Shown: one piece after another, positions 42,392 through 48,239 of the stretch
Layout: the number at the start of each line of letters is the position of its first letter
Position numbering within the stretch: position 1 is the stretch's first letter
From: Chryseobacterium sp.
GTDB taxonomy: Bacteria > Bacteroidota > Bacteroidia > Flavobacteriales > Weeksellaceae
Assembly (NCBI GenBank): GCA_031286615.1
Contig: JAITUA010000007.1
Span: forward strand, 234,701-298,700
Length of the DNA stretch: 64,000 bases
Direction: 5' to 3'
Position numbers and translations under genes: made by a program
Notes under the pieces: model-generated
The model's database searches: none
What the model was told of the DNA's origin: nothing
What the model saw: only the letters and a program-made list of their open reading frames with translations

Positions 42392-43372
42392 ATGAATGTA
42401 CAGTTAAAACAGGATTGTCATTTTAAAAATGATGGTGCCGATAATTTCGGTTCGGACGTTTTAAAAGGACTGTCCTCTCATCCGAAAAAATTATCTTCAA
42501 AATATTTTTACGACAAAACAGGCGACCGTCTCTTCCAGCAGATTATGGCCATGCCGGAGTATTATCTTACCAATTGTGAGCTGGATATATTTCAGAATAA
42601 AACAGAGGAGCTTGCAAAAGCGATTTCCAATATCAATGAATCTTTTGATTTGATAGAATTAGGAGCAGGCGATGCGATGAAATCATCTTATCTTCTTAAA
42701 AATTTAGTAGAGAAAGGAACAGATTTTACCTATATGCCTATTGATATTTCAGGAAATATTCTTTCTGTTTTACAGGAAAATCTGAAGAAAAAACTGCCCG
42801 AACTGGAAATTTTACCCTTGGAAGGAGAGTATTTTGATATGCTTGACAAAGCCACAGGGATTTCTAAAAGGAAAAAAGTAGTCCTTTTTTTAGGCGGAAA
42901 TATTGGGAATATGGAAAGTGAGGAAGCCAGACATTTCTGCAATGAAGTGAAAAGAAAACTGAATGCCGGAGACTTGTTTCTCGTAGGTTTTGACCTGAAG
43001 AAAAACCCAAACACTATTCTTGCAGCTTATAACGATCCTGCGGGAATTACAGCTTCTTTCAATCTTAATCTTCTGACAAGAATCAACCGGGAACTGAAAG
43101 CTGATTTCAAGCTGGAAAATTTTCAGCATTATCAAAATTATGATCCTATTTCAGGAGCCTGCAGAAGTTTTTTGGTAAGCCTTTGTGATCAGGAAGTGCA
43201 TGTAGGAAGCCATTTGTTTTCTTTTAAAAAAGATGAACTGATTGATATGGAGATCTCCCAGAAATTTTCTGAACAGGATATCAAAAAACTGGCTGGGGAC
43301 GCAGGATTTCATATTCTTGTTGAGATTAAAGATACTAAAAACTGGTTCGTAGATTCTATCTGGATGGTATAA
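42392..43372 (+). CDS. egtD: L-histidine N-alpha-methyltransferase EgtD
   Basis: 326 residues, normal length. Trimethylates histidine to hercynine with three SAM, the first step of ergothioneine synthesis. Seen: the SSKYFYDKTGDRLFQQIMAM segment and PEYYLTNCE that mark EgtD, the SAM loop LIELGAGDAMKSSYLL, and VVLFLGGNIGNME. First gene of a five-gene operon; the EgtB gene begins 16 bp later. Confidence 0.95.
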   Translation: MNVQLKQDCHFKNDGADNFGSDVLKGLSSHPKKLSSKYFYDKTGDRLFQQIMAMPEYYLTNCELDIFQNKTEELAKAISNINESFDLIELGAGDAMKSSYLLKNLVEKGTDFTYMPIDISGNILSVLQENLKKKLPELEILPLEGEYFDMLDKATGISKRKKVVLFLGGNIGNMESEEARHFCNEVKRKLNAGDLFLVGFDLKKNPNTILAAYNDPAGITASFNLNLLTRINRELKADFKLENFQHYQNYDPISGACRSFLVSLCDQEVHVGSHLFSFKKDELIDMEISQKFSEQDIKKLAGDAGFHILVEIKDTKNWFVDSIWMV

Positions 43373-43388
43373 TTTAAAATGATTTTTT

Positions 43389-44579
43389 ATGAAAAAAGAT
43401 GCATTACTTGTAAAAGCAAATCCTCATAAAAACTGGACAAAAAAATACTCTGAAATCAGAAATCATTCCGTTGAGATTTGCAGTCCTTTGGAAATTGAAG
43501 ACTATGTGGTTCAGCCTATAGTAGATGTAAGTCCTCCGAAATGGCATTTGGGCCACACAACCTGGTTTTTTGAAACCTTTATTTTACAGCCCAATTTTCC
43601 GGGTTATGAAGTTTTTGATCCCCAGTATAATTTTGTATTCAATAGTTATTACGAAACGATCGGGGCCCGCGTTATCCGTACTGACAGAGGGAATCTGAGC
43701 CGTCCGTCTGTTTCAGATGTTTTTAAATACCGTGAATATGTAGATCAAAAGATGGATGAATTTCTCCAGAACGGATATCTTACAGAATCGCTGGAATCTC
43801 TGTTGGAATTAGGGTTAAACCACGAACAGCAACACCAGGAATTATTATTGACAGATATCAAATACATTTTAGGTCATAATCCTTTATTTCCTGCTTACAA
43901 AAAGGAAAATATTTCAAAAAATGAAACTGTTGTAAACTCAGAAATGATAAGCTTTTCAGAAGGAATTTATGAAATAGGTTTTAAAGGAGAAGACTTTTGT
44001 TTTGATAATGAGCTGGGAAGACACAAAGTATACCTGAATGATTTTAAAATTTGCAGTCAGTTAGTGACCAATAAAGAATATTTAGAATTTATTGAAGCGG
44101 GAGGCTATGAGGATTTCAGACACTGGCATGCCGAAGGTTGGGATTGGGTGAAGCAAAATAATGCAAAATCCCCCTTATACTGGCATTTCATTGATGGGAA
44201 ATGGATGAATTATACTTTGCACGGTTTAGAAGAAATTGACCTTGATGAAGCCGTTTGCCATATCAGTTTTTTTGAAGCATCCGCATTGGCTTCATGGAAA
44301 GGAAAACGCCTGCCCACCGAAGCTGAATGGGAAGCTGCATCAGAATATTTTGACTGGGGAAAAAGCTGGGAATGGACCAATTCCGCTTATCTTCCATATC
44401 CGGGATATAAAAAAGAAGCAGGAGCCGTAGGGGAATATAATGGGAAATTTATGGTGAATCAAATGGTTCTTCGCGGTGCTTCAGTGGCCACTCCGCCCGG
44501 ACACAGCAGAAATACATACCGTAATTTTTTCCAGACCCATTTACAGTGGCAGTTTACCGGAATCAGACTTGCACAATAA
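43389..44579 (+). CDS. egtB: Ergothioneine biosynthesis sulfoxide synthase EgtB
   Basis: 396 residues. Iron(II) enzyme that joins hercynine to a thiol compound using oxygen. DinB-like N-terminal domain with metal ligands His56 (WHLGHTTWFFETF) and the H-x3-H-x-E motif NHEQQHQE (His145, His149), then a formylglycine-enzyme-type C-terminal domain (LPTEAEWEAA, VLRGASVATPPGHSRNTYRNFF). No EgtA or EgtC gene is present, so direct use of cysteine rather than gamma-glutamylcysteine is likely, but the cosubstrate cannot be read from sequence with certainty. The next gene starts 8 bp after its stop. Confidence 0.93.
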   Translation: MKKDALLVKANPHKNWTKKYSEIRNHSVEICSPLEIEDYVVQPIVDVSPPKWHLGHTTWFFETFILQPNFPGYEVFDPQYNFVFNSYYETIGARVIRTDRGNLSRPSVSDVFKYREYVDQKMDEFLQNGYLTESLESLLELGLNHEQQHQELLLTDIKYILGHNPLFPAYKKENISKNETVVNSEMISFSEGIYEIGFKGEDFCFDNELGRHKVYLNDFKICSQLVTNKEYLEFIEAGGYEDFRHWHAEGWDWVKQNNAKSPLYWHFIDGKWMNYTLHGLEEIDLDEAVCHISFFEASALASWKGKRLPTEAEWEAASEYFDWGKSWEWTNSAYLPYPGYKKEAGAVGEYNGKFMVNQMVLRGASVATPPGHSRNTYRNFFQTHLQWQFTGIRLAQ

Positions 44580-44587
44580 TTTTGCCT

Positions 44588-45508
44588 ATGATTACAGTTG
44601 AATCGGTTTCAAAAAGTTTTAACGGGAAAAAAGCCGTTGATGCTATTTCTTTTCAGGCCAATGATAAAGAAATTTTGGTGCTTTTAGGAACAAGCGGCTG
44701 CGGAAAAACAACCATGCTGAAGATGATAAACCGTCTCGTTGACGTAGATTCCGGAACTATTTTGATTGATGGTAAAAATATTCAGTCACAAAAAGTGGAA
44801 GAGGTGTGTATGGGAATCGGATTTGTTATGCAGCATTCCGGATTATTTCCCCATTACACCATACAACAGAACATAGCAGTCATTCCTGAATTATTGAAAT
44901 GGGACAAAAAAAAGACAGCCAGAAGAACTCTTGAATTATTGCATAAACTTCATCTTTCAGAAGAGGTACTTACAAGATTTCCAAACGAATTAAGCGGCGG
45001 ACAGCAGCAAAGAGTAGGAATTGCCCGTGCTTTGATTGCAGATTCATCTGTTTTGCTGATGGACGAACCGTTCGGAGCATTAGATAATATTACTAAAACC
45101 GATATTCATTCAGAATTCAAATCGCTGGAAGAACTTAAAAATAAGACGATTATTCTGGTTACCCACGATGTTCAGGAAGCATTTGATTTAGGCCATAAAA
45201 TCTGCCTGATGGATCAAGGAAGAATTATTCAGACGGGAACTCCGAAAGAAATGCTGTATCAACCTAAAAATGATTTTGTTAAAAATTTCTTTGCCAAAAA
45301 CCGGCTTTTACTGGAATATAAAGTGGCCAGACTGAAAGATCTGACCTCTCTGATTGAAGGCCGCCGTTTCTATGAAGAGCTTCATTTTTCAGAAAATTCA
45401 AATGTATGGGATACTTTGCAGCAGTTGAGTGCAGATACTTTGCTTTCCGAAGATTATGAAACTCTGGTGAAAGCTTTTAATGAATACCGAAAACTTCAGG
45501 CTGTATGA
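44588..45508 (+). CDS. ABC transporter ATPase, EgtV/OpuCA-like
   Basis: About 306 residues from the ATG at 44588, placed 8 bp after egtB; the frame is open back into egtB (44546) but those 14 residues are out of family. Walker A GTSGCGKTT, signature LSGGQQQRVGIARAL, Walker B VLLMDEPFGALD and switch THDVQEAFDLG place it in the betaine/choline/ergothioneine (OpuC/EgtV) group. The C-terminal 70 residues do not show the CBS pair of OpuCA. Stop and next start overlap (ATGA), so expression is coupled to the permease fusion. Confidence 0.93.
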   Translation: MITVESVSKSFNGKKAVDAISFQANDKEILVLLGTSGCGKTTMLKMINRLVDVDSGTILIDGKNIQSQKVEEVCMGIGFVMQHSGLFPHYTIQQNIAVIPELLKWDKKKTARRTLELLHKLHLSEEVLTRFPNELSGGQQQRVGIARALIADSSVLLMDEPFGALDNITKTDIHSEFKSLEELKNKTIILVTHDVQEAFDLGHKICLMDQGRIIQTGTPKEMLYQPKNDFVKNFFAKNRLLLEYKVARLKDLTSLIEGRRFYEELHFSENSNVWDTLQQLSADTLLSEDYETLVKAFNEYRKLQAV

Positions 45509-47070
45509 GTGAGCAAAGTTTTTGGCAGTTTATCACAGAGCAGCATGAGAAACTGCTTACTCAGGTTGTACAGCATCTGGGACTTACTTTTTTGTCTCTG
45601 TTTCTGGCGATTATTATTGGAGTACCTTTAGGGATTCTTATTGCCCGGAAAAGAAAATTATCAGGTTCTGTTTTGGGAATTGCAGGAATTTTACAAACGA
45701 TTCCCAGTATTGCTTTGCTCGGTTTTATGATTCCTGCTTTCGGGATTGGGGCAACTCCGGCTATTGTAGCATTGCTGATCTACGCGCTTTTACCCATCAT
45801 CAGAAATACTTACACCGGAATAGCGGAAGTAGATCCGGCGGTAACTGAAGCTGCAAAAGCAATGGGAATGAATAGAAGACAGTTGCTTTTCAAAGTTCAG
45901 CTTCCTTTGGCAATGCCTGTCATTATTGCAGGAATCAGAACAGCGGCGGTTATTAATGTTGGGGTGGCTACTTTGGCTTCATTTGTGGCAGCAGGAGGTT
46001 TGGGTGAATTTATTTTTGGCGGAATTTCCCTTAATAATACCAATATGATTCTAGCTGGTGCAATTCCGGCAGCGTTATTGGCTGTTCTTTTAGATCAGAC
46101 CATCGCAGTTTTACAGAGATTAAGTTATCAGTCAGTAAAGAAATTAAAATATATTGTTCCGGTTGTTTTGGCGATTGTTGGGATCGTTTATTTTTTGGTT
46201 TCCGCTTCAAACCATAAGCTTAAGGCAGGTTTTACACCTGAATTTATGGGAAGGCAGGACGGTGATCTGGGGCTTCGTTCGGTATACGGGCTTGATGTAC
46301 AGCCTCTGGTGGTAAGTGATGCCATTATGTACAAAGCAGCTTACGAAAAAGAATTGGACCTCATCAGCGGATATTCTACAGATGGGAGGATCAAAGCTTT
46401 TGATTTGTACGTTCTGGAGGATGACAAGAAGATTTTTCCTCCCTATTTTGCTGCTCCGGTGATCAAAACAAAAACTCTGGAAAAGTTTCCCGAACTGGAA
46501 AAAACTTTGAATCTTTTAGCAGGTAAATTCAATGATTCAATCATGACAGATTTGAATTATAAAGCTGATTATCTTAAACAAACTCCTGAGAAAATTGCTA
46601 AAGATTTTTTAGTAAGAACAAACCTATATAAAAATCCACGCAAAGGAAATTCCCAAACCATAAAAATCGGGTCAAAAATTTTTGGTGAACAGTATATTCT
46701 TGCCGAAATTTACAAAATGCTCATTGAAGGCTATACCGATTATAAAGTGGAAACAAAAACAGGGCTTGGCGGAACGAAAATCTGCTTTGATGCTCTGATG
46801 AATGATGCGATTGATTTTTATCCTGAATATACGGGAACCGGGCTGCTGGTTTTGCTGAAACCTTCGGCAAAAACGATAGAAGAAGTCTCTAAGAGTCCGG
46901 AAAAAACATTGGATTATGTCAATCTGGAATTTCAGAAACAATACGGAATTGAATGGCTGAAACCACTCGGTTTTAATAATGCGTATGCTTTGATGATGCG
47001 AAGGAAACAGGCGAATGAACTTAAAATTAAAAATATTTCAGACCTGAAAAATTATCTGGATTCAAATTAA
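45505..47070 (+). CDS. ABC permease fused to a substrate-binding domain with swapped halves (EgtU-like)
   Basis: 521 residues. Residues 1-235 are an OpuCB-type permease (LQTIPSIALLGFMIPAFGIG, AAKAMGMNRRQLLFKVQLPLAMPVI). The rest is an osmoprotectant/ergothioneine-type binding domain facing the periplasm. In known fusions such as pneumococcal EgtU the order is KIGSK..E-half, then the half with LKAGF..EF..R.DG..GL..YGL and YSTD..I. Here the order is reversed: residues 238-375 hold LKAGFTPEFMGRQDGDLGL, GYSTDGRIKAFDLYVLEDD and FPPYFAAPV; residues 384-518 hold TIKIGSKIFGEQYILAEIY, YPEYTGTGLL and LKPLGFNNAYAL, ending at ISDLKNYL. So the binding domain is circularly permuted. Context with egtD and egtB suggests ergothioneine as ligand; betaine or choline are alternatives. 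Confidence 0.9.
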   Translation: MSEQSFWQFITEQHEKLLTQVVQHLGLTFLSLFLAIIIGVPLGILIARKRKLSGSVLGIAGILQTIPSIALLGFMIPAFGIGATPAIVALLIYALLPIIRNTYTGIAEVDPAVTEAAKAMGMNRRQLLFKVQLPLAMPVIIAGIRTAAVINVGVATLASFVAAGGLGEFIFGGISLNNTNMILAGAIPAALLAVLLDQTIAVLQRLSYQSVKKLKYIVPVVLAIVGIVYFLVSASNHKLKAGFTPEFMGRQDGDLGLRSVYGLDVQPLVVSDAIMYKAAYEKELDLISGYSTDGRIKAFDLYVLEDDKKIFPPYFAAPVIKTKTLEKFPELEKTLNLLAGKFNDSIMTDLNYKADYLKQTPEKIAKDFLVRTNLYKNPRKGNSQTIKIGSKIFGEQYILAEIYKMLIEGYTDYKVETKTGLGGTKICFDALMNDAIDFYPEYTGTGLLVLLKPSAKTIEEVSKSPEKTLDYVNLEFQKQYGIEWLKPLGFNNAYALMMRRKQANELKIKNISDLKNYLDSN

Positions 47071-47081
47071 TAATCTTAAAC

Positions 47082-48239
47082 ATGAAGTACAATTTCGACG
47101 AAATCATAGAAAGGAGAGGAAGTCATTCCGTAAAATGGGACTGGGCAAAGGCAGACATTTTACCTATGTGGGTTGCTGATATGGATTTTAAAACTGCTCC
47201 GGAAGTGATTCAGGCTATCTCTGAGAAGGTTTCTCACGGTGTTTACGGATATGGTACTATTCCTAAAAGTTTTCATCAGTCTGTTATCGATTGGTGGGAA
47301 ACAAATCATCATTTTACGATAGAAAAAGACTGGCTTTTACCTGCAACGGGCATTCTTCCGTCACTTTCGGCGATCGTTCGTACTTTTGTAAAGCCTGATG
47401 AAAATATTATTTTGCAGACTCCTGTTTACAATCATTTTTTTACCATTTTAGAAAATTACGGCTGTCATGTTGTTTGTAATGATCTGAAATATGAAGCAGG
47501 AAATTACACCATCGATTTTGATGATCTTGAAGAGAAAGCTTCTGATCCGAAAACTAAACTTTTGCTGTTCTGCAATCCTCATAACCCGGTGGGGAAAGTC
47601 TGGACAAGAGAAGATCTGGAGAAAATAGCTGATATTTGTTCGCGGAACAACGTGATGGTAGTTTCTGATGAGATTCATTCTGATTTGATTTTTAATAACC
47701 GTCAGCACATTCCGTTTGTTTCGGTAGCACAGCATTATGAGCTTCAGTCAGTTACTTGTGGTTCGCCATGTAAGACTTTCAATTTCTCAGGGTTGCCAAT
47801 ATCGTATCTGATTTCTCAGGACAAAAATATACTAGAACAGACCGGCAAAATGCTGGAACTTCAGGAAAACAGCTATCCTAATCCAATTGCCATGGAAGCC
47901 TTGATTGCTGCCTACACAAAAGGACATGAATGGATGGATGAACTGAAAGACTATCTGTATCAGAATTTCATATTTCTGAAGAGTTTTTGCAGTGAACATC
48001 TGCCTGAAATCAAAGTGACTCCTTTGGAGGCTACTTATCTTGTTTGGCTGGATTGTCGCGCATTCGGTAAAACTTCTGATGAATTGTCAAAAATTCTTTT
48101 GATGGACGGCAAAGTGTGGCTTAATTCGGGGACGATGTATGGTCAAAATGGGGAAGGTTTTATGAGAATCAATATCGGTTGTCCAAGGCAGCTCCTGGCA
48201 GAAGGGCTGGAACGATTGAAAAAAGCTTTGAAAGAATAA
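47082..48239 (+). CDS. MalY/PatB-type PLP-dependent C-S lyase, candidate EgtE equivalent
   Basis: 385 residues. Fold-type I aminotransferase-like C-S beta-lyase: NPHNPVGKVWTREDLE, VVSDEIHSDLIF and the PLP Lys (about 231) in CKTFNFSGLPISYLI. Family members cleave cystathionine or cysteine conjugates to thiol, pyruvate and ammonia. It begins 11 bp after the EgtU-like gene and ends the egt operon. The last step of ergothioneine synthesis needs such a lyase for hercynylcysteine sulfoxide; in mycobacteria that is the different PLP enzyme EgtE, absent here. So it is a candidate replacement, by inference. Confidence 0.9.
   Translation: MKYNFDEIIERRGSHSVKWDWAKADILPMWVADMDFKTAPEVIQAISEKVSHGVYGYGTIPKSFHQSVIDWWETNHHFTIEKDWLLPATGILPSLSAIVRTFVKPDENIILQTPVYNHFFTILENYGCHVVCNDLKYEAGNYTIDFDDLEEKASDPKTKLLLFCNPHNPVGKVWTREDLEKIADICSRNNVMVVSDEIHSDLIFNNRQHIPFVSVAQHYELQSVTCGSPCKTFNFSGLPISYLISQDKNILEQTGKMLELQENSYPNPIAMEALIAAYTKGHEWMDELKDYLYQNFIFLKSFCSEHLPEIKVTPLEATYLVWLDCRAFGKTSDELSKILLMDGKVWLNSGTMYGQNGEGFMRINIGCPRQLLAEGLERLKKALKE

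What the first reader, a model, noticed from the sequence alone, without database searches (positions are those of the whole stretch)
45505..47070. Circularly permuted substrate-binding domain in an EgtU/OpuC-type permease fusion
Seen directly: after the permease (1-235) the segment with LKAGFTPEFMGRQDG, YSTDGRIKAFD and FPPYFAAPV comes first (238-375), and the segment with IKIGSKIFGEQ, YPEYTGTGLL and LGFNNAYAL comes second (384-518), ending at ISDLKNYL. In canonical OpuCC/EgtU fusions (recalled pneumococcal EgtU sequence) IGS/TGT/NNTYA comes first and ISDL runs directly into LKAGF..EF..R.DG. The break falls exactly at the ISDL / LKAGF join. A related domain dislocation is known for OpuAC versus ProX, but I know of none for the OpuCC/EgtU class. 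New termini would tether the opposite lobe to the membrane.
Basis: partly seen in the sequence, partly recalled or inferred. Interest (0 to 1): 0.85.

Follow-up and report, generated by a model that had tools for sequence, protein, structure and literature searches.

The report
Permuted ergothioneine-type importer in Bacteroidota
A bacterial nutrient importer has the two halves of its ligand-catching domain in swapped order, and many related bacteria share the swapped version, often beside genes that make the antioxidant ergothioneine, so it is a real and probably old rearrangement rather than an error.

Summary
The 521-aa ORF at 45505-47070 is an ABC permease fused to an EgtU/OpuC-type substrate-binding domain (SBD) whose halves stand in C-then-N order: SBD residues 2-140 align to EgtUC 138-276, and 149-280 to EgtUC 7-134. 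It is no artefact: 98 of 320 family genomes carry it in one full-length piece, as do 22 of 395 genomes phylum-wide. The SBD model is confident (pLDDT 93.7). Of the 50 PDB rows listed, only Bacillus subtilis OpuAC fits full length at rmsd about 5. OpuAC is permuted in the same loop but remote in sequence, so the permutation looks convergent. The break lies in lobe D2, so the tether moves from D1 to D2. Neighbours are egtD, egtB, the ATPase and a PatB lyase. All 98 family genomes with an intact copy have EgtB. Ergothioneine-contact residues are invariant except SpEgtU's two specificity positions (G244 is F, F293 is Y). Best reading: an importer of ergothioneine or hercynine in a permuted EgtU-like clade. 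Ligand untested. New variant of a known kind.

The parts
42392..43372 (+). egtD, histidine N-alpha-methyltransferase
   Evidence: TIGR03438 300 bits, cut-off 290.9; PF10017
43389..44579 (+). egtB, ergothioneine biosynthesis iron enzyme
   Evidence: TIGR03440 546 bits, cut-off 360
44588..45508 (+). ABC ATPase (EgtV-like). The ORF opens at 44546 (GTG); the ATG at 44588 is the likelier start (inference). Its stop overlaps the permease ATG.
   Evidence: ABC_tran; TIGR01186 proV 277 bits, below its cut-off of 326.6; no CBS domain among the Pfam matches at E up to 0.001
45505..46206 (+). permease (TMD), residues 1-234; last helix 208-234 is the likely membrane anchor of the SBD
   Evidence: BPD_transp_1 39-211; helix 208-234 in the full-length model, local pLDDT about 62-74
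46213..46635 (+). SBD first half (residues 237-377), equals the C-terminal half of canonical EgtUC (chain 138-276)
46627..46659 (+). junction linker (residues 375-385) joining the old C terminus to the old N terminus
   Evidence: gap between the two aligned halves; linkers of other members printed
46654..47058 (+). SBD second half (residues 384-518), equals the N-terminal half of canonical EgtUC (chain 7-134)
46450..46956 (+). lobe D1, now contiguous (residues about 316-484); lobe D2 is made of about 239-303 and 494-521
   Evidence: alignment plus EgtUC D1/D2 limits in PMC9732360 (passage)
47047..47070 (+). new C terminus just after ISDL, and stop
47082..48239 (+). PatB-family C-S lyase, candidate EgtE
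   Evidence: TIGR04350 439.7 bits, cut-off 340; the EgtE role is inference

Best explanation
The ORF is the permease-plus-binding-domain subunit of an ABC importer of the EgtU/OpuC kind, whose binding domain is circularly permuted: permease, then the old C-terminal half, then the old N-terminal half (shown). The permutation keeps the two-lobed fold and the ligand cage (model and residue mapping, in silico). It moves both chain ends into lobe D2, so the membrane anchor helix holds D2 through about 6 residues instead of D1, and D1 becomes one continuous stretch (inferred from the mapping). With the ATPase encoded just upstream it would import a histidine betaine, most likely ergothioneine or its precursor hercynine, into cells that also make it (inferred from neighbours, co-occurrence and pocket residues). 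It probably arose once in Bacteroidota by tandem duplication of the SBD and loss of the outer halves (inferred), in the same loop that was opened independently in B. subtilis OpuAC.
For: Permutation. Conservation: single-piece match in 98 of 320, 27 of 395, 22 of 395 genomes. Fold: SBD model pLDDT 93.7, pTM 0.89; match to B. subtilis OpuAC over 291-300 columns, rmsd 4.8-5.3, TM 0.59-0.67 by either length, but 133-140 columns to EgtUC despite 44-45% identity. Same break: OpuAC 2b4l 7-157 matches a canonical SBP's 133-282 and 169-267 its 33-130; Pfam positions of the break 113/114-115 here, 109/118 in OpuAC. Ligand: egtD, egtB, ATPase, permease, lyase in one row; EgtB within the 1.5-kb flank in 30 of 30 best family loci; 51 of 80 named loci with EgtB and/or EgtD in the locus, in differing gene orders; 98 of 98 family genomes with an intact copy have EgtB, against 48 of the other 222; 21 of 23 further permuted genomes have EgtB over cut-off. 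Pocket: K242, T275, T296, N339, Y341, E375, R379, D381, Y419 and Y443 (SpEgtU numbers) identical in 139 of 139 permuted translations. A separate glycine-betaine-type ATPase/permease/SBP set exists elsewhere in the genome. SBD tree: the 19 permuted representatives are one side of a branch, 86/94.
Against: Both SpEgtU specificity positions differ: G244 is F in 135 and Q in 4 of 139, F293 is Y in 139 of 139. PMC9732360 reports about 100-fold weaker ergothioneine binding for G244F in SpEgtUC (with lost stability) and says subclusters without these two may bind something else. 29 of 80 named loci have no EgtB/EgtD in the locus, 22 of them with full 6-kb flanks, and 2 of 23 permuted genomes lack EgtB over cut-off. 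Canonical transporters of the phylum co-occur with EgtB too (25 of 31), so EgtB does not go with the permutation as such. In the permease trees the permuted rows are not one clade (2 changes, 3, where long outgroup branches meet); holding them together is not rejected, p-AU 0.523. SBD-tree support is below the tool's star and roots are not inferred. Relatedness inflates the co-occurrence count.
Confidence: 0.75

Rival explanations
1. The permuted importer carries a general osmoprotectant (choline, glycine betaine, carnitine) and its place beside egtDB is incidental.
For: G244 and F293, the specificity positions named in PMC9732360, are not kept; 29 of 80 named loci are not linked to egt genes; PMC9732360 notes that some related transporters, with H. 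pylori as the example, have much lower ergothioneine affinity.
Against: 98 of 98 family genomes with an intact copy have EgtB; linkage in several gene orders; E375 and R379, which contact the imidazole and carboxylate, invariant in 139 of 139, whereas the 5 canonical TMD-NL-CL transporters found in the family have D375, F419 and T244; a separate glycine-betaine-type system is in the genome.
Confidence: 0.13
2. The physiological ligand is hercynine or another histidine betaine rather than ergothioneine.
For: EgtD next door makes hercynine (established pathway); F at 244 fills the site that in SpEgtUC leaves room for water around the thioimidazole (PMC9732360 passage).
Against: EgtB is also next door, so the end product is made; EgtUC proteins discriminate strongly against hercynine (PMC9732360), although those have G244.
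Confidence: 0.2
3. Assembly error, frameshift or pseudogene that only looks permuted.
For: Broken relatives exist (G096 in two pieces, G103 truncated; remnants in G001 and G012).
Against: The same order in 98 genomes of the family and across the phylum, invariant pocket, confident model.
Confidence: 0.01
4. The permuted order was inherited from B. subtilis-type OpuAC rather than arising anew in the EgtU/OpuC family.
For: Same connectivity and same loop.
Against: 44-45% identity to EgtUC over the C half against 13-15% to OpuAC; the permuted profile finds 27 EgtU/OpuC/ProX/OsmF-type PDB sequences, all in canonical order by the place of their best stretch, and not 2b4l, at E up to 1; the SBD tree places the clade among canonical EgtU/OpuC relatives (no OpuAC in that tree).
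Confidence: 0.03

Closest known systems
EgtU of Streptococcus pneumoniae (EgtUC structures 7txl, 9egi)
   Same: Both halves homologous (44-45% identity over the C half); Tyr cage and contacts to imidazole and carboxylate kept; SBD fused to the permease
   Different: Order of halves swapped; tether on D2 instead of D1; G244 and F293 not kept
Bacillus subtilis OpuAC (2b4l)
   Same: C-half then N-half order with the break in the same loop
   Different: Separate lipid-anchored protein (PMC2861598 passage) with Trp side chains at the trimethylamine (PMC9732360 passage), 13-15% identity, not fused to a permease
Lactococcus lactis OpuA (7ahd)
   Same: Permease-SBD fusion with an anchoring helix and short linker (PMC11065425 passages); first rank for the full-length model
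   Different: SBD collinear with the canonical order, so the full-length match (rmsd about 10) does not show equal SBD topology; its ATPase has CBS domains (passages), not seen here
Canonical NL-CL-TMD fusions of other Bacteroidota
   Same: F244 and Y293 in 29 of 29, cage residues the same, T275 is S in 6 of 29; 6 of 27 loci with wide flanks hold EgtB/EgtD
   Different: SBD in canonical order and placed before the permease

Membership tests
EgtU (SpEgtU type) | SBD fused to the C-terminal side of the permease | tested here: met
EgtU (SpEgtU type) | SBD of EgtU/OpuC/ProX sequence type | tested here: met
EgtU (SpEgtU type) | canonical order N half then C half | tested here: not met
EgtU (SpEgtU type) | cage residues N339, Y341, Y419, Y443 and contacts K242, T296, R379, E375 | tested here: met
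   139 of 139 permuted translations
EgtU (SpEgtU type) | specificity determinants G244 and F293 | tested here: not met
   F and Y in the window protein
EgtU (SpEgtU type) | high-affinity ergothioneine binding | not testable with these tools
   needs ITC or fluorescence titration
OpuAC (B. subtilis type) | C-half then N-half connectivity | tested here: met
OpuAC (B. subtilis type) | sequence homology to OpuAC beyond the fold | tested here: not met
   13-15% identity; 2b4l not found by the profile at E up to 1. Both do match PF04069, a broad family.
OpuA (L. lactis type) | CBS-bearing ATPase and canonical SBD | tested here: not met
Ergothioneine biosynthesis gene cluster | EgtD and EgtB over curated cut-offs | tested here: met
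Ergothioneine biosynthesis gene cluster | C-S lyase acting as EgtE | tested here: inconclusive
   PatB-family lyase adjacent, a match in the flank of 16 of 30 family loci; activity not testable

The most novel reading that the evidence does not exclude
The swap is an adaptive, convergent change of how a binding domain is held on its transporter: in Bacteroidota histidine-betaine importers and in B. subtilis OpuAC the same D2 loop became the chain ends, moving the membrane tether to the other lobe and changing docking or release, so the loop is a permutation hot spot of this SBP fold.
Probability: 0.35. Interest if true: 0.75.

Novelty: new variant of a known kind. Interest (0 to 1): 0.6.

Why it matters
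It is a natural circular permutant of a well-studied transporter domain, fused to its permease and kept in many species of a phylum, with canonical relatives in the same phylum as controls. That makes a clean question testable: does it matter which lobe of a substrate-binding domain is tethered to the membrane? It also points to import of ergothioneine, or its precursor, in bacteria that synthesise it, with the importer encoded beside the biosynthetic genes.

Tried and rejected
Rejected: assembly error or pseudogene. Rejected: the full-length Foldseek match to OpuA 7ahd as proof of equal SBD topology; phmmer showed L. lactis OpuA/OpuAC is collinear with the canonical order, so of these only B. 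subtilis OpuAC shares the permuted order. Rejected: strict membership in SpEgtU, because order, G244 and F293 fail.

Led nowhere: literature searches for a described permuted EgtU/OpuC domain (most lists were capped at 15 or 20 papers; one search returned none). The one listed paper that I opened and that bears on it is CPSARST (PMC2395249: passages and section 11), which reports circular permutation among 2b4l, 1r9l and 1sw1. ECOD (PMC6588880: passages) speaks of permutation in exporter permeases only. The library is open-access PMC, so absence there is weak. The OpuAC structure paper (Horn 2006) was seen only as a reference entry; the term 'domain dislocation' was in 0 of the 15 papers listed and is otherwise unchecked. 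A survey outside Bacteroidota was not possible beyond plasmids: of 1290 matching plasmid records I checked the order in 5, all canonical, one of them with a partial duplication. The 435 lower-ranked relatives were not seen. A search for PF00310 in the own genome found nothing; I picked that family from memory as a stand-in for EgtC, it may be the wrong one, and I draw nothing from it. Counts and the permuted/canonical split rest on handle lists copied or counted by hand.

Full report
1. What is there. The ORF at 45505-47070 (+) encodes 521 aa without stops. Residues 39-211 match the ABC permease family BPD_transp_1, and the rest matches PF04069 in two stretches in reversed profile order. Against solved structures, SBD residues 2-140 align to EgtUC chain 138-276 and 149-280 to chain 7-134, with i-Evalues 1.7e-34 and 8.1e-20 for the best chain. 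A profile of 54 permuted domains finds 29 distinct PDB sequences at E up to 1. Of these, 27 are of EgtUC, OpuCC/OpuBC, ProX or OsmF type (including engineered sensors) and have the canonical order, judged by the place of the best stretch. The other two are weak one-piece matches to L. lactis OpuA (E 0.0027 and 0.016).

2. It is conserved. The family search (320 genomes) gave 98 genomes with a single-piece match of at least 514 of 521 query residues, one of them with two copies (counted). The order-wide search gave 27 permuted and 3 canonical of 395, the phylum-wide search 22 permuted and 31 canonical of 395; these samples overlap. A search of the class of G712, which lies outside the window's class, gave 4 permuted and 35 canonical of 145, overlapping. 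The one named scan found 515 relatives and kept the best 80, which by their titles are all Bacteroidota (Chryseobacterium, Chitinophaga, Pontibacter, Dyadobacter, Hymenobacter, Pedobacter, Mucilaginibacter, Phaeodactylibacter and others). 80 of 80 are permuted, but they were ranked by likeness to a permuted query.

3. Architectures. Among 173 distinct translations carrying all three segments there were 139 permease-Chalf-Nhalf, 29 Nhalf-Chalf-permease and 5 permease-Nhalf-Chalf; they come from searches with permuted queries, so the proportions are not a census. Trees used 52 representatives (19 permuted, 28 and 5 canonical), with 4 canonical outgroups added. In the SBD tree, built with the halves put in one order, the 19 permuted rows are one side of a branch (86/94), which attaches between three canonical outgroups and the remaining canonical rows. 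In the permease trees they are not one clade, but holding them together is not rejected (p-AU 0.523). One origin is therefore the simplest reading, not proven.

4. Fold. The SBD model is confident (pLDDT 93.7, pTM 0.89). Foldseek's five best PDB matches are B. subtilis OpuAC chains over 291-300 columns at rmsd 4.8-5.3 and 13-15% identity. EgtUC at 44-45% identity matches only 133-140 columns. The other rows of the 50 listed that span about 290 columns or more have rmsd 6.9 or higher. This is what a domain with EgtU sequence but OpuAC connectivity should give. Sequence evidence agrees: a glycine-betaine-type SBP of the same genome, in canonical order by PF04069, matches OpuAC 2b4l in two swapped pieces but L. 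lactis OpuAC and OpuA in one piece. On the Pfam profile the break is 113/114-115 here and 109/118 in OpuAC, i.e. the same loop. CPSARST (PMC2395249, passages and section 11) reported circular permutation among glycine-betaine-binding proteins in 2008. The full-length model (pLDDT 81.3, pTM 0.64) has a helix at 208-234, modelled with only moderate confidence, and the first SBD strand at 241. Its best match is L. lactis OpuA, but at rmsd about 10 and with a canonical SBD, so that match is not evidence for the topology.

5. Lobes. PMC9732360 (outline, passages, section 13) gives D1 as 232-331 and 445-503, and D2 as 341-432. The break (363/367 in SpEgtU numbers) is inside D2. In the window protein D1 becomes one stretch (about 316-484) and D2 is built from both ends (about 239-303 and 494-521). 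The mapping is by alignment; the geometry is inference.

6. Ligand. Upstream lie egtD (TIGR03438) and egtB (TIGR03440), both over their cut-offs, then the ATPase whose stop overlaps the permease start. Downstream lies a PatB-family C-S lyase that could act as EgtE. EgtB is within the 1.5-kb flank in 30 of 30 best family loci, the lyase in 16 of 30. Of the 80 named loci, 51 have EgtB and/or EgtD in the locus (49 both), in at least three gene orders; of the 29 without, 22 have full 6-kb flanks. In the family, 98 of 98 genomes with an intact permuted transporter have EgtB, 48 have EgtB without it and 174 have neither (relatedness not corrected; EgtB limit 1e-60). Among 54 other genomes, EgtB is over cut-off in 21 of 23 permuted and 25 of 31 canonical, so EgtB goes with this transporter family in both orders. 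Pocket residues (SpEgtU numbers) K242, T275, T296, N339, Y341, E375, R379, D381, Y419 and Y443 are identical in 139 of 139 permuted translations, linked or not. Position 244 is F in 135 and Q in 4, position 293 is Y in all. PMC9732360 calls G244 and F293 specificity determinants, so affinity may be lower or the ligand somewhat different. Canonical Bacteroidota relatives, of which 6 of 27 loci with wide flanks hold EgtB and EgtD, have the same F244 and Y293 in 29 of 29. The genome also has a separate glycine-betaine-type ATPase, permease and SBP, which argues against a plain betaine role.

7. How it may have arisen. Tandem duplication of the SBD followed by loss of the outer halves would give this order. 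A Lacticaseibacillus paracasei plasmid carries a frame-broken partial SBD duplication of that general kind (L235); it shows that such duplications happen, not that this one did.

8. Verdict. The finding is real. The permutation is of a known kind (OpuAC) but in a family and a fused architecture for which I found no description in the searches listed in Tried and rejected. Ergothioneine or hercynine import is the best-supported function and needs a binding test.

Noticed in passing
L011:1330-1623 (genome G001) and L010:1504-2034 (genome G012): Same-genus genomes keep only the last 40-46 residues of the permuted gene: in G001 the start of the ATPase lies next to the end of the permease while egtB and the PatB lyase stay; in G012 an egtD fragment lies beside the remnant.
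   Followed up: partly
L235:1348-3500 (Lacticaseibacillus paracasei plasmid NC_022123.1): EgtU-like fusion with a partial tandem duplication of its SBD and a frame break; looks like the first step of permutation by duplication, or a dying copy.
   Followed up: partly
L067:427-2613 (genome G326): 729-aa single open frame permease-SBD-ATPase (canonical SBD order), a half-transporter in one polypeptide.
   Followed up: no
L185-L192 and L193-L219: Fusions with the SBD before the permease (N half, C half, permease) occur in other Bacteroidota lineages; 6 of the 27 loci L193-L219 hold EgtB and EgtD.
   Followed up: partly
genomes G096 (C1:4819377-4820935) and G103 (C10:525018-526040): Broken copies: G096 is split into two overlapping pieces with EgtB still present; G103 lacks most of the permease and has no EgtB match at the limit used.
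   Followed up: partly
L087 and L126 (Pontibacter silvestris); L101 and L106 (Chryseobacterium caseinilyticum): Two permuted copies in one genome; in P. silvestris one is beside egt genes and one is not, in C. caseinilyticum neither has them in the locus.
   Followed up: partly
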